NCBI GenBank assembly: GCA_947598455.1
Contig: CANQFI010000052.1
Span: 1 to 10,873 of the forward strand
Origin: an uncultured Bacilli bacterium
GTDB lineage: Bacteria; Bacillota_I; Bacilli_A; RF39; UBA660
Direction: 5' to 3'
Length of the DNA: 10,873 nt
The notes beneath the pieces were generated by a model, which was not told where the DNA came from, did not search any database, and saw only the letters and a program-made list of their open reading frames with translations. The translations under genes and the position numbers were made by a program. Positions 2,402 through 9,779 of this stretch are shown one piece after another (positions within the stretch are counted from its first letter, which is position 1; the number at the start of each line of letters is the position of its first letter).

Positions 2402-4165
2402 ATGAAAAAGAAGAATAATCTTAGTTCACTATTTAAAAAGCAAACTCATAATAATTCTACACAATCTGTAAAAAATAAATTTTTTCCAACAGGGATGTTT
2501 AATGATAATACTATAAATGATGTTAATTCTTCAACAAGTGGTGATGCTAATAGTCAATTTATAAATAGAACAACATGGGGTGTTGGAAGCAATGATTCTA
2601 ACAATAATGATAATAATACTGTTTATGCACCAGAAGTTTTGGATTTGTTTGATGAGGAAATAGAAACTTTAATGGATGATGTTAATGGAACTACTTATAA
2701 TATTATGAATTCTAATCAACAGGTTTCTAGTACTAATACAAATAATTATATAAATACTAATCAAATAAATAACAATCAAATGATTAATAATCAAATGATT
2801 AATAATCAAATGAATAATAACCAAATGAATAATAACCAAATGAATAATAACCAAATGATTAATAATTCAATGAATAATAACCAAATGAATAGTAACCAAA
2901 TGCAAAATAATTATAATGGACAATATTCAAATATGAATATGAATCAACAAAACTGGTCAGATCAACAACCTTTAAGTATGGGAGGTTTGGGAGTTAATAC
3001 GATAGTTGGTGAAGATACACCAAAAGAAATAGTTGAAAATAGTAAATATATTATGCCAAGAAATTATAAGTTTGCTGATAATAAAATAACTATTCCAGAG
3101 CCGCCTTTAACAAATAATCAACGTAGTGCATTTGATTTTGATGATCCACCACAAGAAATAGATGAAGTTAAGCTTTGTAAAGAATATGTAGGGCAAGATT
3201 TTACAAAAATTACAATGGCTCCTTTTTCTTTTCCAGCTTTATTATTTGGTGGAGTATATATTGCTTATAGAAAAATGTATATTTATGGCTTATTAGCTAT
3301 ATTGATAGAAATAGCCTTGCTTAATTTATTACCGGTACCTATTAATTTTGTTTGTACTTTTATTTATAGATTAGTTTTAGCTTTAGGAGTTAATCAATTT
3401 TATTTAGGTAGAGTATCTAGAAAAATTCATCGTTTGAGAAAACATAATCCTAAAAAGACACAGTATGAATTAACTCTTAGAGTTCATAAAACTGGAGGAA
3501 CAAATGTATTAATGGCTATTTTGTTTTTAATTGGATATGGATTTGTAATATTTATAATTGGAGTAGTTTTTAATTTTAATGATATTTTAAATTTATTGCC
3601 TGAAAACGATACGCCAGTAATAAATGAAGATAGTAAAGGTGTTACAGGATTTAATGGGGATTTTACCTATGAAGATTACAATATTTCTAATAATTTTAAA
3701 ATAAATATTCCTGATAATTTTAAAGTACAAGGGAATAACTTTACTTATGTTTATGTAGTACCATTACCAGTTGAAGAAAATCCAGTTAATAATAATGCAG
3801 ATGAAGAAGTGAATAGTAATGATACTGAAATACAAGGAGAAAAGGAACCAGAAGTAAAATATAGTAATAATAAATGTACTTTATCTTTTAATGCGATAAA
3901 GGGTTATAAAAATGAAGAAGATCTAATAAAATCAATTTCTTATTATTATACTCATAAGGAAAATGAAAATATTTTAGAATTAAATAATAATCAGATAAAA
4001 TGGTATGCTTTTGATTTTGAAAAAAATGATGAAAAAAATTTTTATCGAGTAACTAAAAAAGATGGTAAATTATTACTATTATCATATAAAATGGAATATG
4101 AAGATGAGAATAAAATTTGTGAAGGTTACTTTAATCAAATATATAATTCAATATTTATAAAATGA
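2402..4165 (+). CDS. Asn-rich repeat membrane protein with a DUF2628-like region
   Basis: A 587-residue membrane protein in three parts. Residues 1 to about 180 are low-complexity and rich in Asn, Gln, Met and Ser, including nine tandem pentapeptides (123-167). Residues about 255-390 form the membrane part: the sequence PFSFPALLFGGVYIAYRKMY (274-293) followed by helices near 294-312, 314-332 and 369-390. This 'FPAxxFGxxYxxYRKMY' pattern and the following NQFYLGRV segment resemble DUF2628 proteins, which are of unknown function. Residues about 391-587 are hydrophilic and, with three spans and a cytoplasmic head, would lie outside the cell. They contain only two cysteines (C492, C573), a possible disulfide. 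The start has a good ribosome binding site, seven bases upstream. The gene stands alone between a promoter and a terminator. Family assignment is by motif memory. Confidence 0.75.
   Translation: MKKKNNLSSLFKKQTHNNSTQSVKNKFFPTGMFNDNTINDVNSSTSGDANSQFINRTTWGVGSNDSNNNDNNTVYAPEVLDLFDEEIETLMDDVNGTTYNIMNSNQQVSSTNTNNYINTNQINNNQMINNQMINNQMNNNQMNNNQMNNNQMINNSMNNNQMNSNQMQNNYNGQYSNMNMNQQNWSDQQPLSMGGLGVNTIVGEDTPKEIVENSKYIMPRNYKFADNKITIPEPPLTNNQRSAFDFDDPPQEIDEVKLCKEYVGQDFTKITMAPFSFPALLFGGVYIAYRKMYIYGLLAILIEIALLNLLPVPINFVCTFIYRLVLALGVNQFYLGRVSRKIHRLRKHNPKKTQYELTLRVHKTGGTNVLMAILFLIGYGFVIFIIGVVFNFNDILNLLPENDTPVINEDSKGVTGFNGDFTYEDYNISNNFKINIPDNFKVQGNNFTYVYVVPLPVEENPVNNNADEEVNSNDTEIQGEKEPEVKYSNNKCTLSFNAIKGYKNEEDLIKSISYYYTHKENENILELNNNQIKWYAFDFEKNDEKNFYRVTKKDGKLLLLSYKMEYEDENKICEGYFNQIYNSIFIK
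2768..2902 (+). repeat. Nine in-frame 15-bp tandem repeats
   Basis: Nine units of 15 bases encode [NI][NS]N[QS]M, with consensus aataataaccaaatg. The units at 2813, 2828, 2843 and 2873 are identical, as are those at 2783 and 2798. Others differ by a few bases. Because the unit is a multiple of three, gain or loss would change the length of the protein head without shifting the frame. Confidence 0.95.
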
Positions 4166-4192
4166 GACTGACGGATTAATAGTCAGTTTTTT
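4166..4192 (+). terminator. Rho-independent terminator
   Basis: ACTGAC (4167-4172) pairs with GTCAGT (4182-4187) around a nine-base loop, followed by a run of T to 4192. It lies directly after the stop codon of the 2402 gene. Confidence 0.85.
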
Positions 4193-4223
4193 CTTTAGTT
4201 AAATATATTTATAGTAAAGATAA

Positions 4224-4252
4224 TTTATAAATAAATATCAAAGTGATATAAT
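4224..4252 (+). promoter_or_regulatory. Promoter of the murL-murD operon
   Basis: TTTATA (4224-4229, four of six) and a perfect TATAAT (4247-4252) are 17 bases apart, with a TGn extension (TGA, 4244-4246). The box ends 17 bases before the murL ATG, so the leader is only about ten bases and consists mostly of the ribosome binding site. Confidence 0.65.
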
Positions 4253-4269
4253 TTTTAAGAGGGATTTAG

Positions 4270-5610
4270 ATGAAAAAATTAGAAGAGTTAAGAAAGTTTA
4301 ATACTTTTAGATATAAGAGTTATGATATTACTTATTTAGATAATTTGGTAAAGATTGGCTTTCATTTTATGATTGATGGTTTAAAAGATTTTAATCCAAC
4401 TTTAGAAATACCAATGAGTAATAAAAAAATAGATAAAGAATATGTTGATTATTTAGTTTTTAATATAGGGATGATAGAAGCTATTAGCTATTGGAAATGT
4501 ACATGTCCTTATAATTTTATTATTGAATGTGGAAGTTTAGATTTGAAACAAGAACAATTTTTTAGAAAGATTTTCTATTATGGTTTAGGAGAATTCTTTT
4601 ATGTTAATAAAATTAATTTAGATTATGATAAGTTTATTAATTTTGAAAGTAAAGGATCTAAGTATAAAGTTAATATTAAATATGAGGGCAGAGGAGATAT
4701 GGTTGCTGTTGGAGGCGGTAAAGACTCTTGTGTGACTTTAAATTTAGTTAGTAAGGCAACTCCTTTTATTATTAATCCTAAACAAGTAATGCTTGATTGT
4801 GCTTATATGGCTGGTTATCAAGATGAAGAGATAATTAAAATAAAGAGAGAACTAGATAAAAGTTTAATAGAATTAAATAAAGAAGGCTTTTTAAATGGAC
4901 ATACACCTTTTTCAGCAATGGTAGCTTTTGTTTCTTATTTAGCTGCATATTTAAATAATAAAAAGAATATTATTTTATCTAATGAATCTAGTGCTAATGA
5001 AGCTAATGTATTAGGAACTAAAATAAATCATCAGTATTCTAAATCTTTTGAATTTGAAAAAGATTTTGATAATTATCAAAGAGAATATTTAGGGGATATA
5101 ATTAAGTATTTTTCATTACTTAGACCATTAACAGAATATCAAATCGGTATGTTATTTGCTAGATATTCTAAATATCATAATATCTTTAAAAGTTGTAATG
5201 TTGGTAGTAAGAAAGAACCTTGGCATTGGTGTGGTAAATGTGCGAAATGTTTATTTGTCTATTCTTTATTAAGTCCATATTTATATAAAGATGAATTAGT
5301 CCGTATTTTTGGTAAAGATTTATTTATGGATTTAGAATTATTACCAATGTTTAAAGAATTACTAGGTTATGAGAATGTTAAACCTTTTGATTGTGTGGGG
5401 ACTTTTGAAGAAATAAATTATGCTATTTATAAAACAATTAATAAATTAGATGATAATCAACTACCAGTTTTACTTAAATATTATAAAGAAAATTATTATA
5501 AAGATTTAAGTTATTTAGATTTAGAACATAGATGGAATAATGAGCATAATTTAAGTGAAAAATATATAAAATTAGTTAGGGATGCTATTAATGATAGAGA
5601 AAATAATTAA
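4270..5610 (+). CDS. murL: UDP-MurNAc-L-Ala-L-Glu epimerase MurL
   Basis: A 446-residue cytosolic protein matching MurL. That enzyme converts UDP-MurNAc-L-Ala-L-Glu to the D-Glu form using ATP, releasing AMP and pyrophosphate, and so supplies D-glutamate to peptidoglycan without a racemase. The sequence shows a PP-loop-like nucleotide motif GGGKDS (148-153), the segment SNESSANEAN (237-246) followed by an INHQYSKSFEFE stretch, and a four-cysteine site C309, C321, C324, C327 (CGKCAKC). The last resembles the zinc site of QueC-like PP-loop enzymes. No signal peptide or membrane span is seen. GAGGG lies six bases before the ATG. The strongest context is the murD gene that overlaps its 3' end by 20 bases. 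The main alternative is an uncharacterised PP-loop enzyme. The family call is from recognition and was not searched. Confidence 0.83.
   Translation: MKKLEELRKFNTFRYKSYDITYLDNLVKIGFHFMIDGLKDFNPTLEIPMSNKKIDKEYVDYLVFNIGMIEAISYWKCTCPYNFIIECGSLDLKQEQFFRKIFYYGLGEFFYVNKINLDYDKFINFESKGSKYKVNIKYEGRGDMVAVGGGKDSCVTLNLVSKATPFIINPKQVMLDCAYMAGYQDEEIIKIKRELDKSLIELNKEGFLNGHTPFSAMVAFVSYLAAYLNNKKNIILSNESSANEANVLGTKINHQYSKSFEFEKDFDNYQREYLGDIIKYFSLLRPLTEYQIGMLFARYSKYHNIFKSCNVGSKKEPWHWCGKCAKCLFVYSLLSPYLYKDELVRIFGKDLFMDLELLPMFKELLGYENVKPFDCVGTFEEINYAIYKTINKLDDNQLPVLLKYYKENYYKDLSYLDLEHRWNNEHNLSEKYIKLVRDAINDRENN
5578..5581 (+). promoter_or_regulatory. Ribosome binding site that decides the murD start
   Basis: AGGG at 5578-5581 directly abuts the upstream ATG at 5582, leaving no spacing, but is nine bases before ATG 5591. 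The latter is therefore preferred. Confidence 0.55.
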
Positions 5611-6943
5611 AAAATTAGTTAATAAAAAAATAGCTATTTTAGGTTTTGGAAGAGAAGGTAAATCAACTTATAAATTTATTAGAAAATATCTTAAAGATGA
5701 AGAAGTTACGATTATTGATAAAGAAGATATTTATAAGATAAATGAAGAAATGTTTAAAGATGATAAAAAGGTTTATTTTATTAGTGGTGATGGCTATTTA
5801 GATAACTTAGATAAATATGATATTATTATTAAAAGTCCAGGTATTTCACTTAATAAAATAGATACATCTTTGTTTTATGATAAGATTAGTTCGCAAATGG
5901 AATTACTTTTAACTGTTGCAAAAGATAAGACTATTGGTGTTACAGGAACTAAAGGAAAAAGTACGACTTCTTCTTTAATAAGTGAAATATTAAAGACAAA
6001 ATATAAGGTAGTTTTAGCTGGTAATATAGGTAAACCTATTTTTGATTTAGACTTAGATGATGAAATTGATTATTTTGTTTTAGAAGTGTCTTCTCATCAA
6101 TTAGAATATTTAGATGTTTCACCGAAAGTTGGAATTATTTTAAATTTATTTCAAGATCATTTAGATCATGCATTAACTATAGAACATTATCATGAAATAA
6201 AAATGCATATGTTTACTAATCAGAGTAGTAATGATTATAGTATTTATTGTGCTTCTAATGATAATTTAAGAAAAATGATTGAAAAGAGTAACTTAAAGAG
6301 TCAGTTATTAGCGGTTGATATTACAGGTAGTAAAGAAGAAGCTATCATGAAAATGATTGATGATAAAATTTATTATAAAGATAACGAAGTATTTGATAGT
6401 AAAATAAAAAGAAATATTTTGGGTAGACATAATTTAGAAAATATTATGGTTTCTTTTTTGGTTGGTAAATTATTTATGATAGATGATGAAGTTATTTTAG
6501 ATGTAATAGCTAATTTTAAGGCTTTACCGTATCGCATGGAATATGTTGGTGAGATAGATAATGTTAAATATTATGTTGATACTTTAGCGACAATACCAGA
6601 AGCAACAATAAATGCTATTAACTCTTTAGAAGATGTTGATACTTTAATATTTGGGGGAATGGACCGAGGAATAGATTATAAAGACTTTATTTTGTTTTTA
6701 CAAAAATGTCATATAAATAATTTTATTTGCATGCCAAAAACTGGTTATGATATTGGAAAACAGTTAGAAGAAAAGAAAGTTTATTATACAGAAACAATAG
6801 AAGAAGCTGTTAAAGTAGCAAAAAAAATAACTAAAAATGGAAAAAGTTGTTTACTTAGTCCAGCGGCAGCTAGTTATGAATATTTTAAAAATTATCAAGA
6901 GAAAGGTGATCGTTTTAAAGAATTAGTTTTAGCAGAAAAATGA
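5591..6943 (+). CDS. murD: MurD-type UDP-MurNAc-L-Ala--glutamate ligase, probably MurD2-like
   Basis: A 450-residue cytosolic Mur ligase with the three-domain MurD layout. After an N-terminal Rossmann domain (AILGFGREGKS) it has the ATP loop GTKGKST (119-125), GNIG (144-147), EVSSHQLE (165-172), DHLDH (189-193) with the probable carbamylated lysine K204, GRHNLEN (278-284), and GGMDRGIDY (355-363). It joins glutamate to UDP-MurNAc-L-alanine with ATP hydrolysis. The usual DSKATN motif of the C-terminal domain is DTLATI here (330-335), losing the conserved lysine. Together with translational overlap with murL, this suggests the L-Glu-adding MurD2 type rather than the D-Glu enzyme; that substrate call is inference. 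ATG 5591 is preferred over 5582 because of ribosome binding site spacing. It ends in TGA and no terminator follows. Confidence 0.9.
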   Translation: MIEKIIKKLVNKKIAILGFGREGKSTYKFIRKYLKDEEVTIIDKEDIYKINEEMFKDDKKVYFISGDGYLDNLDKYDIIIKSPGISLNKIDTSLFYDKISSQMELLLTVAKDKTIGVTGTKGKSTTSSLISEILKTKYKVVLAGNIGKPIFDLDLDDEIDYFVLEVSSHQLEYLDVSPKVGIILNLFQDHLDHALTIEHYHEIKMHMFTNQSSNDYSIYCASNDNLRKMIEKSNLKSQLLAVDITGSKEEAIMKMIDDKIYYKDNEVFDSKIKRNILGRHNLENIMVSFLVGKLFMIDDEVILDVIANFKALPYRMEYVGEIDNVKYYVDTLATIPEATINAINSLEDVDTLIFGGMDRGIDYKDFILFLQKCHINNFICMPKTGYDIGKQLEEKKVYYTETIEEAVKVAKKITKNGKSCLLSPAAASYEYFKNYQEKGDRFKELVLAEK

Positions 6944-6992: not shown

Positions 6993-6999
6993 AAGGTGG
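6993..6999 (+). promoter_or_regulatory. Ribosome binding site that decides the 7008 start
   Basis: AAGGTGG (6993-6999) lies eight bases before ATG 7008. The in-frame GTG at 6996 is inside it and cannot be the start. GTG 7005 remains a minor alternative. Confidence 0.65.
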
Positions 7000-7007
7000 T
7001 TAGTGTG

Positions 7008-7826
7008 ATGAATGATAAAATTTTACCTAGTCTTAAATTAGTTTTTAGACCTTTAGTAATGTATAAAGGTGAATGGGAATTTGCTGATGGTTTAAGAGAA
7101 ATAGCACTAATTAAAAAAGATAAAAATTTATACGATGAATTTATTGAAAGATACTATTATTTGCCTTTAGGAGTAATTTTTAAAGAAGATGATTTAACTA
7201 GAAGTTTTAAATATGAGATATGTTCAACATTAGGAGTTGGAGGAAGAACATTAAGATTTTCGAAAAAAGCTTTCTTACGTAATATAATATCTAATGTAGA
7301 TGATGTTGTTGATTATGGCGATGAAGAGGTCTTTAAAAAATTAAAACAAGCAATTAGAGCACGTAAAGATATTTATCGTGATGTATATAAATTAGATAAA
7401 GATTCAATGTATTATGAAGATTTATATGAAGAATATCAAAATAGTAATGTTGATATGGAATTTAGAGATTATGTAATACTATGTAAGAAAAAATTTACTA
7501 GATTACTAAATGGGTATACAGCATTATTAGAATTATTTGATAAATCAATAGATATAGATAAATTTATTAGTTGTTTTGATGTTAATCAATTATATTTATT
7601 TACGGTTTATTCTATTTTAAAAAATAGTGAAATATATTTTGAAAAATATGGTCGTTTAGATTATAGTGTAGAAACGATAGATTCATATAGGGATTTAGTT
7701 AGTGAATTAAGAAAAGAAAATTCAGAATATGATGCAATTATTAAAGTTAATAATAAAATATATGTAATTGATGATTTATTTAAAGAATATGATGAATTAT
7801 TAAGTAAAAGTAAAACAAATAGATAA
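7008..7826 (+). CDS. Hypothetical soluble protein, 272 residues
   Basis: I do not recognise this protein. It has no signal peptide or membrane segment, is rich in Lys, Asp, Glu and Tyr, and looks mostly helical. The N-terminal third contains PSLKLVFRPLVMYKGEWEFADGL-type mixed strands and a Gly-rich turn in STLGVGGRTLRF. The middle carries basic helical segments such as KQAIRARKDIYRDVYK, and the C-terminal end is acidic and helical. The last 15 residues (258-272) resemble residues 10-24 of the protein encoded by the next gene, with eight identities. It follows the murL-murD pair by 64 bases but has its own -10 box, so a cell-wall role cannot be assumed. An AT-rich hairpin overlaps its stop codon. 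Confidence 0.75.
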   Translation: MNDKILPSLKLVFRPLVMYKGEWEFADGLREIALIKKDKNLYDEFIERYYYLPLGVIFKEDDLTRSFKYEICSTLGVGGRTLRFSKKAFLRNIISNVDDVVDYGDEEVFKKLKQAIRARKDIYRDVYKLDKDSMYYEDLYEEYQNSNVDMEFRDYVILCKKKFTRLLNGYTALLELFDKSIDIDKFISCFDVNQLYLFTVYSILKNSEIYFEKYGRLDYSVETIDSYRDLVSELRKENSEYDAIIKVNNKIYVIDDLFKEYDELLSKSKTNR

Positions 7827-7858: not shown

Positions 7859-7883
7859 TGTTTTATAAAGTAGAGTGATATGT

Positions 7884-9779
7884 ATGCGAGAAAAAAAATA
7901 TGCCCATGTTCTTGAAGAATATGAAGAGATGTTAAAGAAGAGCCGTACTAATGAAGATATTGAAGAAGTTGTGGAAGATGATGAAGAAAAGATAGAAAAT
8001 CTTTCAACGACAAGACAAATTAAGTATAAAGAATTACAAAATTCATTAGATAGTAATGCTATTAATAATGTAATTGATGATGATGTTAAAGAAGACGATG
8101 AAATTGCAACTAATAACTCTGAAGAAAATAAACCAATAAAGGAAAACGTTGAAGATATTTTAGAAAATACTGATCATCTACAAGCATTAGAAAAAATGCC
8201 TCAAGACGATAAAGAAGAACACGTTATAGAAGAGAACTCTGATGAAGATAGTACTGATGTAAAAATAGAACAAGTAAGTGGAAAATCTGATTTAGATGAT
8301 CTTTATTTAACTACTTCTTTTCAACCTTTTAGAAAAAGATTTAAATTAAGTAAATTATTTAAAAAAATAATAATAATTATTTTAATTATTGGAATAGTAG
8401 GTGGAATAGGCTATTTTGGAATTTATCCTTTAGCTCAAAAATATATTTTTAATACACCTAAAAAAGTATTTGAACGTTCAATAGATTATGTGTCTGATAT
8501 GGTAGGAAATATTATTCCTGCAGAAGATGAAAACAATAAAGAAATAGAGTCTTTATTATATAAATATAATATAGATTTTAATTCTGATATTGAAGGTAGT
8601 GAAATACTTTCTGATTATAATTATGCAATAGATTTTGGGGTTGATTTTAAAAAGAATATAATGTTATTAAATGGAACAATGGATAAAGGAGAAGAAAGTG
8701 TTGGAATCTCTTTATATCAAAAGGAGAAAGATGCATATTTAAAATATTCAACTGATGATAATTATATGTTAGTAAATAATGATGCTGAAGAAGTAAATGG
8801 TTTTGAATTACAAGATATCTTTAATTCAATTAATCAAGTTTCAACAAGTGATATGAAGTATGCAATAACTGCAGATTTAAACATATATAAATCATTATTA
8901 GATGATAAATATTTAAGTAAAGATAAAGATGAAATTACAATAGATGGAAAAGCTATTGAAGTAACAAGAAATACTCTTAAGTTAGATCAAAAAGCAGCTA
9001 TTGAATTAGATAAAAAATATTATGAAAAAGTAAAAGAGGATAAAAAACTATTAGAAATATTAGCAATATATGAAGACATGGCAACTTCAGAATATGAAGA
9101 TTATATTGATAATATTAATGTAGAAGATGAATATGAAAAAGATTATGAAGAAGCTATTAATATCTATACAACTAAAGGTAATAAATTTGTTGGTTTTGAT
9201 ATTGAAGAAAACGGCTTTAGAGTAATGTATTATTATACTAATAATAATGAGTTTGACTTTTATATTAATTTAACTGATGATGAAGTATGTCAGGCTGGTA
9301 TGGATTGTGCTGCTGAAGATAAAACGGTCTTTCAGGTAACTGGTGAAAAAAAAGATAATGAAACTGAAACTGTTATAAAATATAATAATAAAAAGATAGC
9401 CACATTATATGTTAAAACATTTACTAAAGATTTAATTGATTTAGATTATGAACTAAATTTCCAAGGTGTTTATTTTGAAGGGACTTTAAAAATTGAGGGA
9501 ATACTAGATAAAAATAAGAGTAATATTGATCTTAATGTTAAGACATCAGAATTTTTTATGAATCTTAAATTAGAATGGGAAGCTAAATATAATTGTGATG
9601 TTGAAATAGTAAAAGGCGATGATTTTGTTCCATATAGTGAAGAAGAGGATACAAAAAGATCTGAAAAGTTTTCGGAAAAACTGGATGAGTTGGGAATATT
9701 GGATATAATTAATGAGACGGCAACGACAGAGATAACGGAAAATGATGATAATTCGGTTGTAGCTTCAAATGCGATATAA
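7884..9779 (+). CDS. Single-span surface protein with an acidic cytoplasmic head
   Basis: A 631-residue protein of a family I cannot name. Residues 1 to about 145 are highly acidic (runs of E/D with scattered Lys), probably disordered and cytoplasmic. A basic stretch (RKRFKLSKLFKK) precedes one strongly hydrophobic span at about 161-183. The remaining ~445 residues should face outward. This part is rich in alternating strand-like segments and Asp, with three cysteines: C469 and C475 close together (a possible small disulfide loop) and C571. No LPXTG motif, lipobox or enzyme motif is seen. The C-terminus is a Thr/Glu/Asn-rich tail. ATG 7884 is chosen because the in-frame GTG at 7875 lies in the purine-rich AGAGTG that serves as ribosome binding site. 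A strong terminator follows immediately. Confidence 0.8.
   Translation: MREKKYAHVLEEYEEMLKKSRTNEDIEEVVEDDEEKIENLSTTRQIKYKELQNSLDSNAINNVIDDDVKEDDEIATNNSEENKPIKENVEDILENTDHLQALEKMPQDDKEEHVIEENSDEDSTDVKIEQVSGKSDLDDLYLTTSFQPFRKRFKLSKLFKKIIIIILIIGIVGGIGYFGIYPLAQKYIFNTPKKVFERSIDYVSDMVGNIIPAEDENNKEIESLLYKYNIDFNSDIEGSEILSDYNYAIDFGVDFKKNIMLLNGTMDKGEESVGISLYQKEKDAYLKYSTDDNYMLVNNDAEEVNGFELQDIFNSINQVSTSDMKYAITADLNIYKSLLDDKYLSKDKDEITIDGKAIEVTRNTLKLDQKAAIELDKKYYEKVKEDKKLLEILAIYEDMATSEYEDYIDNINVEDEYEKDYEEAINIYTTKGNKFVGFDIEENGFRVMYYYTNNNEFDFYINLTDDEVCQAGMDCAAEDKTVFQVTGEKKDNETETVIKYNNKKIATLYVKTFTKDLIDLDYELNFQGVYFEGTLKIEGILDKNKSNIDLNVKTSEFFMNLKLEWEAKYNCDVEIVKGDDFVPYSEEEDTKRSEKFSEKLDELGILDIINETATTEITENDDNSVVASNAI

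What the first reader, a model, noticed from the sequence alone, without database searches (positions are those of the whole stretch)
4270..6943. Overlapping murL-murD pair: racemase-free route to D-glutamate
Seen: a PP-loop-like protein resembling MurL overlaps a MurD ligase gene by 20 bases behind one promoter. Known: in Xanthomonas oryzae, MurD2 adds L-Glu to UDP-MurNAc-L-Ala and MurL epimerises it in an ATP-dependent step. Inference: this low-GC Gram-positive-like organism uses that pathway, and may lack glutamate racemase (MurI) and a canonical MurD. Occurrence in a small AT-rich Bacilli-like genome would be notable for peptidoglycan evolution and for antibiotics aimed at MurI.
Basis: partly seen in the sequence, partly recalled or inferred. 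Interest (0 to 1): 0.72.

Follow-up and report, generated by a model that had tools for sequence, protein, structure and literature searches.

The report
Racemase-free D-glutamate genes in Bacilli
This DNA from an uncultured Bacilli-like bacterium carries a two-gene unit that most likely adds ordinary L-glutamate to the growing cell-wall building block and then flips it to the D form, a route known from Xanthomonas and some other bacteria, which may help explain how these bacteria build walls without the usual racemase.

Summary
ORF 4270-5610 matches MurL (NF041275, E=1.9e-72, 244 bits; curated cut-off 700) and no QueC model. It overlaps a MurD-family ORF (5591-6943, TIGR01087, 304 bits) by 20 bases. 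No whole genome is held for the window, so relatives were tested. Of 24 MurL-bearing genomes (23 taken as Bacilli, 1 Patescibacteria), 0 have MurI and 23 have one MurD over cut-off. The 25 MurL-linked MurDs examined form one group beside X. sacchari MurD2 and have Ile/Leu where 49 of 49 MurDs from MurL-less genomes have Lys, Glu, Val or Ala; Lys-to-Thr there lets canonical MurD accept L-Glu (PMC8788868). MurL's predicted fold resembles QatC and QueC, with a GGGKDS loop and QueC-like cysteines, which fits carboxylate adenylation. Verdict: a new, phylum-extending instance of the known MurD2-MurL pathway. Caveats: no assay; published MurD2 residue Glu197 is Asp here; pairwise, the ligase scores slightly higher to E. 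coli MurD than to X. sacchari MurD2; 39 of 91 MurD-bearing genomes of the order show neither MurI nor MurL.

The parts
4224..4252 (+). promoter-like site, TTTATA-17-TATAAT with TG before the -10, 17 bases before the murL start
   Evidence: pattern match only, hardly above chance for the window
4270..5610 (+). [quoted passage not shown] GGGKDS loop at residues 148-153; C309-x11-C321-xx-C324-xx-C327
5591..5610 (+). 20-base murL-murD overlap (29 bases if murD starts at 5582)
   Evidence: 20-base overlap also in X. sacchari
5591..6943 (+). [quoted passage not shown]
   Evidence: TIGR01087 304 bits; Leu at the E. coli Lys319 site, Arg at the Lys348 site; groups with MurL-linked MurDs and X. sacchari MurD2

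Best explanation
The two genes encode the MurD2-MurL route to the D-glutamate of peptidoglycan. [quoted passage not shown] The organism, an uncultured Bacilli-like bacterium, therefore would not need glutamate racemase. Shown here: family membership by sequence, gene coupling, absence of MurI in MurL-bearing relatives, MurD2-type residues and grouping, QueC-like predicted fold and motifs of MurL. Known from X. oryzae enzymes (PMC8788868): the reactions, one ATP used with AMP formed, and the one-way direction; Micromonospora and Salinispora orthologues were also confirmed in vitro. The adenylate mechanism is those authors' hypothesis. Inferred by me: that these proteins do the same here, that the QueC-like fold does the adenylation, and translational coupling by the overlap.
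Against: No activity has been measured. The window's own genome is not held. At the published MurD2 site Glu197 (E. coli Asp182) the window has Asp, and 10 of 25 MurL-linked MurDs, window included, do (15 have Glu); E197D altered specificity in X. oryzae MurD2 (PMC8788868). The Pro433 site is Ala here. Arg at the Lys348 site does not discriminate (25 of 25 and 47 of 49). Pairwise BLAST scores the window ligase slightly higher to E. coli MurD (136 bits, 28%) than to X. sacchari MurD2 (124 bits, 25%). Two MurDs of MurL-less, MurI-bearing genomes (G041, G047) also lack Lys at 319 (Val, Ala) and lie next to the MurD2 group in the tree. The NF041275 score is far below its curated cut-off. G076 has a second, canonical-type MurD. 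39 of 91 MurD-bearing genomes of the order show neither MurI nor MurL, so lack of MurI alone does not prove use of MurL. The genomes' completeness is not told; the closest one, G001, also lacks an alanine racemase match, so parts may be missing.
Confidence: 0.88

Rival explanations
1. The ligase is a canonical D-Glu-adding MurD, and the MurL homologue does another ATP-dependent job (for example a different QueC-like or PP-loop reaction on a cell-wall intermediate).
For: Asp at the Glu197 site and Ala at the Pro433 site are as in E. coli MurD, and Arg at the Lys348 site occurs in 47 of 49 MurDs of MurL-less genomes (PMC8788868 notes Arg in S. mutans MurD). BLAST is slightly better to E. coli MurD than to X. 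sacchari MurD2. The MurL score is below the NF041275 cut-off.
Against: Ile/Leu at the Lys319 site, Glu16 and Lys113 are shared with X. sacchari MurD2 and all but absent from the order's other MurDs; grouping with MurD2; no MurI, PF01177 racemase or Dat over cut-off to supply D-Glu in the order draw's 12 MurL-bearing genomes.
Confidence: 0.07
2. Both routes coexist: the pair is a backup, and D-Glu also comes from uptake or an unknown racemase with a second MurD.
For: G076 carries murL-murD2 plus a canonical-type MurD on another contig; 39 MurD-bearing genomes of the order show neither MurI nor MurL, so another D-Glu source may exist in the order.
Against: 23 of 24 MurL-bearing genomes have no second MurD over cut-off.
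Confidence: 0.05

Closest known systems
MurD2-MurL pathway of Xanthomonas oryzae (XOO_1320/XOO_1319), also assayed from Micromonospora and Salinispora (PMC8788868, parts 1 and 2 of 3 read)
   Same: MurL family match; murL-murD order with overlap (X. sacchari); no MurI in 24 MurL-bearing genomes; MurD2 shares Ile/Leu at the Lys319 site, Glu16 and Lys113 and groups with it
   Different: Host is a low-GC Bacilli-like organism (hosts listed in the review are Gamma- and Alphaproteobacteria and rare actinobacteria); 34% identity in MurL; Asp instead of Glu197, Ala instead of Pro433, Tyr instead of Phe435 in MurD2
QueC / QatC (QueC family, PF06508; PMC13329287 and PMC13279940, passages seen)
   Different: No QueC model hits the sequence; deazaguanine-binding motifs were not looked for; the substrate, by family, is a muramyl peptide
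Canonical MurD + MurI
   Same: Same ligase family (TIGR01087); same final product
   Different: MurI absent from 24 of 24 MurL-bearing genomes; ligase lacks the SK-motif lysine (E. coli Lys319)

Membership tests
MurL (NF041275) | significant match over most of the family model | tested here: met
   1.9e-72, residues 13-392 on model 10-396 of 447
MurL (NF041275) | score over the curated (Xanthomonadales) cut-off of 700 bits | tested here: not met
   244.2 bits. The cut-off marks the Xanthomonadales equivalog, so the claim here is membership of the wider MurL family, not of that equivalog
MurL (NF041275) | gene next to a MurD2-type ligase | tested here: met
   24 of 24 loci same strand and order, 22 of 24 with a possible overlapping start; X. 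sacchari the same; divergent pair in the Patescibacteria genome
[quoted passage not shown]
   needs an assay
MurD2 | MurD family ligase | tested here: met
   TIGR01087 303.8 bits over the 211.95 cut-off
MurD2 | Glu at E. coli Asp182 (X. oryzae Glu197) | tested here: not met
   Asp in the window; across MurL-linked MurDs Glu 15, Asp 10 of 25. So it is not an X. oryzae-type active site in full, and I call it MurD2-type by the other features
MurD2 | Arg at E. coli Lys348 (X. oryzae Arg358) | tested here: met
   Arg in 25 of 25, but also in 47 of 49 other MurDs, so not diagnostic
MurD2 | loss of Lys at E. coli Lys319 / S. mutans Lys330 (published change to Thr admits L-Glu) | tested here: met
   Leu in the window; Ile/Leu 25 of 25 MurL-linked, 0 of 49 others; Ile in X. 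sacchari MurD2. That Ile/Leu marks MurD2 in general is my inference; 17 of the 49 others also lack Lys (Glu 15, Val 1, Ala 1)
MurD2 | groups with known MurD2 rather than canonical MurD | tested here: met
   99/95 with X. sacchari MurD2; only that one MurD2 and E. coli as references, both long branches; pairwise BLAST is slightly better to E. coli MurD
MurD2 | uses L-Glu | not testable with these tools
   needs an assay
racemase-free genome | no MurI and no D-amino-acid transaminase in the genome | tested here: inconclusive
   own genome not held; relatives: MurI 0 of 24; Dat over cut-off 0 of 12, not searched in the other 12
QueC family (PF06508) | sequence match to the family | tested here: not met
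   no QueC hit in Pfam or NCBIfam at E up to 1 for the window protein; only fold and motifs are shared
QueC-like fold | PP-loop Rossmann-like domain with SGGxDS-type loop and zinc-type cysteines | tested here: met

The most novel reading that the evidence does not exclude
MurL is a further functional branch of the QueC/QatC scaffold: a PP-loop ATPase with a zinc-type cysteine site that adenylates a peptidyl carboxylate in order to epimerise it. Together with a MurD2 marked by Glu16, Lys113 and Ile/Leu319, it forms a cassette found in at least three phyla (Pseudomonadota, Bacillota, Patescibacteria) that supplies the wall D-Glu in a set of uncultured Bacilli, some of whose kin have been thought to need scavenged muropeptides.
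Probability: 0.65. Interest if true: 0.75.

Novelty: new member of a known kind. Interest (0 to 1): 0.62.

Why it matters
A 2024 survey of RF39, RFN20 and ML615J-28 Bacilli (PMC10868615, section 20 and passages) found missing wall-precursor steps and inferred muropeptide scavenging unless unidentified genes replace them. It does not say in the text I read which steps are missing, but murL-murD2 could be such a replacement for the D-Glu step. Gene-content predictions that use MurI as a marker would miss it. If the pathway is used, MurI inhibitors should spare these bacteria, and MurD2/MurL inhibitors sought against Xanthomonas and Stenotrophomonas could also hit them. The MurD site pattern may help tell L-Glu ligases from D-Glu ligases in genomes. 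The QueC-like fold would give the ATP requirement of MurL a structural basis.

Tried and rejected
Rejected: QueC or another PP-loop enzyme misread as MurL (no such family hits the window sequence above its cut-off; only a weak PAPS reductase match at E 0.13 and DUF6395 at 0.0015, both below cut-off; one of 20 members has a weak NAD synthase match at 0.13). Rejected: defence-system QatC (no PADLOC hit). Rejected: a MurD-epimerase fusion for the 915- and 938-residue MurD frames in G009 and G091; by reading they are MurD-MurC fusions. Led nowhere: PDB sequence searches for MurL, viral contigs (87 pattern matches, none a relative), tRNA and Rfam, plain Foldseek. The Pfam copy held gave no MurL domain above cut-off, although the protein database lists PF26298 and PF26299 for the homologues. 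Not tested: Dat and PF01177 in the 10 class-level genomes, G003 and G004; the MurI rate over the whole class draw. The second residue table counted the initial Met and is off by one; one search has the published numbering and is the one used.

Literature: the searches showed me, in their listings, no paper placing MurL in Bacilli or linking it to QueC (one search listed 40 of 72 hits and 20 of 37; most listed papers were not opened). Six papers were opened: PMC8788868 (parts 1 and 2 of 3), PMC5808125, PMC7301438, PMC13329287 and PMC13279940 (passages), PMC10868615 (section 20 and passages). The library lacks most subscription papers; the original Feng 2017 report I know only through the two reviews.

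Full report
Check of the observation. The window (GC 22-26% per kilobase) holds a row of genes on the + strand. ORF 4270-5610 encodes 446 residues and matches only the MurL model NF041275 among 18,950 NCBIfam models at E up to 1 (1.9e-72, 244 bits, residues 13-392; the model's cut-off of 700 bits is set for Xanthomonadales). ORF 5582/5591-6943 matches MurD (TIGR01087, 304 bits, over its cut-off of 212) and Pfam Mur_ligase_M, Mur_ligase_C and MurD-like_N.

Conservation of the pair. The loci found in bacterial genomes are L001 (68% identity in MurL), L002 (54%), L003 (51%) and a Patescibacteria genome, L004 (35%). In 24 loci examined (window plus 23 MurL-bearing relatives taken as Bacilli), murL and murD lie in that order on one strand in 24, and a possible murD start inside murL exists in 22. 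In the Patescibacteria genome the two genes are divergent neighbours. Xanthomonas sacchari has annotated murL 2800-4155 and murD 4136-5572 in L109, again a 20-base overlap. A protein search scored 8,000 candidates, 7,997 of them at E up to 1e-5; 120 are listed, and the only organism named among these is Candidatus Coprovivens, class Bacilli.

Does the organism lack the racemase? No whole genome is held for the window. I therefore used 24 MurL-bearing genomes: 12 of 117 drawn from the order of L001's genome, L003's genome, the Patescibacteria genome, and 10 more among the 16 of 395 drawn from the class (6 of the 16 were already among the 12). MurI (TIGR00067) is found in 0 of 14 and 0 of 10. 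In the same draw of 117, 48 genomes have a MurI match, 44 over cut-off; none of them is one of the 12. Fisher p for the order draw is 0.003 with over-cut-off matches and 0.001 with any match; the genomes are related to each other, so these are not true probabilities. The wider Asp/Glu racemase family PF01177 is in 47 of 117, none of the 12. The D-amino-acid transaminase model has 3 matches in 117 and none over cut-off; one of these, an 18.6-bit partial match inside a 611-residue frame, is in a MurL-bearing genome (G095). MurD over cut-off occurs once in 13 of 14 and in 10 of 10 of the MurL-bearing genomes; G076 has two. Alanine racemase is found in 20 of 24, over cut-off in 19, so the lack of MurI is not a general lack of wall genes. 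But the closest genome, G001, is one of the four without an alanine racemase match, and the completeness of these assemblies is not told.

Which substrate does the ligase use? The review PMC8788868 (parts 1 and 2 of 3 read) names Glu197, Arg358, Pro433 and Phe435 in X. oryzae MurD2 for Asp182, Lys348, Ala414 and Leu416 of E. coli MurD. It also reports that Lys330Thr in S. mutans MurD slightly improved acceptance of L-Glu and that Lys319Thr in E. coli MurD admitted it; the former was the sole clone selected together with MurL. I aligned 25 MurL-linked MurDs (window, 23 relatives taken as Bacilli, Patescibacteria), 49 MurDs of MurL-less genomes of the order (of 79), E. coli MurD and X. sacchari MurD2. 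At Lys319 the MurL-linked set has Ile 20 and Leu 5; the others have Lys 32, Glu 15, Val 1, Ala 1; X. sacchari MurD2 has Ile. Glu at position 16 and Lys at 113 are also in 25 of 25 and in X. sacchari MurD2, against 0 of 49 and 1 of 49. Results that do not discriminate or go against: Arg at 348 is in 25 of 25 and 47 of 49; at 182 the MurL-linked set is Glu 15, Asp 10, and the window is Asp; at 414 the window has Ala. Pairwise BLAST gives the window ligase 136 bits to E. coli MurD and 124 bits to X. sacchari MurD2. So the four published positions alone would leave the window undecided; the Lys319 site and the grouping decide it for me.

Descent. A maximum-likelihood tree of 75 MurDs puts all 25 MurL-linked ones in one group (98/85), joined by X. 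sacchari MurD2 (99/95). Of 48 MurDs of the order that are not MurL-linked (47 from MurL-less genomes plus G076's second copy), 46 lie on the E. coli side (97/91); the two others (L080 of G041, L081 of G047, both MurI-bearing) lie next to the MurD2 group and have Val and Ala at the Lys319 site. The X. sacchari, E. coli and Patescibacteria branches are long, and references are few. The simplest reading is that these bacteria carry a distinct MurD2 lineage together with murL, not a canonical MurD altered in place.

What is known and new. The pathway is known. PMC8788868 lists Gamma- and Alphaproteobacteria and rare actinobacteria as hosts, and PMC5808125 (passages) adds low-similarity orthologues in cyanobacteria, a fungus and an amoeba. 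Neither names Bacilli or Patescibacteria in the text I read. PMC10868615 (section 20 read; a find for murI, glutamate racemase, MurL, murD and D-glutamate gave 0 in the main text) reports missing precursor steps in RF39, ML615J-28 and one RFN20 family, without naming them there, and infers muropeptide scavenging unless unidentified genes replace them. Against a general gap, PMC7301438 (passages) found the peptidoglycan pathway complete in four RFN20 and RF39 genomes, two of them lacking UDP-GlcNAc synthesis. I rate it a new member of a known kind, with a range extension to Bacillota and Patescibacteria and two leads (Lys319 marker, QueC-like MurL) that I did not see in print in the listings.

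Open point. Of 91 genomes of the order draw with a MurD over cut-off, 12 have MurL, 40 have a MurI match, and 39 have neither; none of the 39 has a PF01177 match, and one (G069) has a below-cut-off Dat match of 92 bits. The 21 of these 39 that are in the alignment have Lys or Glu at the Lys319 site. Their D-Glu source is unexplained; gaps in the assemblies, uptake, or another enzyme are all possible.

Noticed in passing
order census, e.g. G005, G021, G037, G074: 39 of 91 MurD-bearing genomes of the order draw have no MurI, no MurL, no PF01177 racemase and no Dat over cut-off (G069 has a 92-bit Dat match below it). The 21 whose MurDs were aligned keep Lys or Glu at the Lys319 site. A third D-Glu source or uptake may exist, or the assemblies are incomplete.
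   Followed up: partly
L112 (MT836755.1), 3881-5278 and 5199-6539: A record labelled UNVERIFIED Bacteriophage sp. from human faeces looks to me like a bacterial contig: it carries a murL-murD pair (MurL 43% identity; MurD with CIATIP at the Lys319 site) beside what read like elongation-factor-G and NUDIX genes (by eye, no family search).
   Followed up: partly
L110, L111 (Pseudonocardia plasmids): Plasmid-borne MurL homologues with GGGRDS and the cysteine cluster lie next to a WD40-repeat gene, with no murD annotated within 3 kb (that gene table is incomplete); perhaps a MurL paralogue with another job.
   Followed up: partly
G076:C47 (L104, L019): A genome with murL-murD2 also carries a canonical-type MurD on a separate 8.3 kb contig; either a transitional genome or contamination.
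   Followed up: no
L099 (G009) and L100 (G091): MurD and, by reading, MurC are fused in one frame of 915 and 938 residues in two MurL-less genomes of the order.
   Followed up: partly
window 2741-2932 within ORF 2402-4165: A 15-base tandem array (about 10 copies) encodes an Asn/Gln/Met-rich repeat in a protein with a DUF2628 match just below cut-off; by eye L001 has a similar gene before murL without such an array.
   Followed up: no
window 6996-7826 and 7875-9779: Two genes without a convincing family match follow murD and, by reading, keep the same order in L001 (7674-8495, 8553-10028); a possible envelope-linked neighbourhood.
   Followed up: no
G004:C40 (L005, L032): A Patescibacteria genome whose genes read through with TGA as glycine has divergent murL and MurD, with Glu at the Asp182 site, Ile at Lys319 and Pro at Ala414, closer to X. 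oryzae MurD2 at the published sites than the window is.
   Followed up: partly
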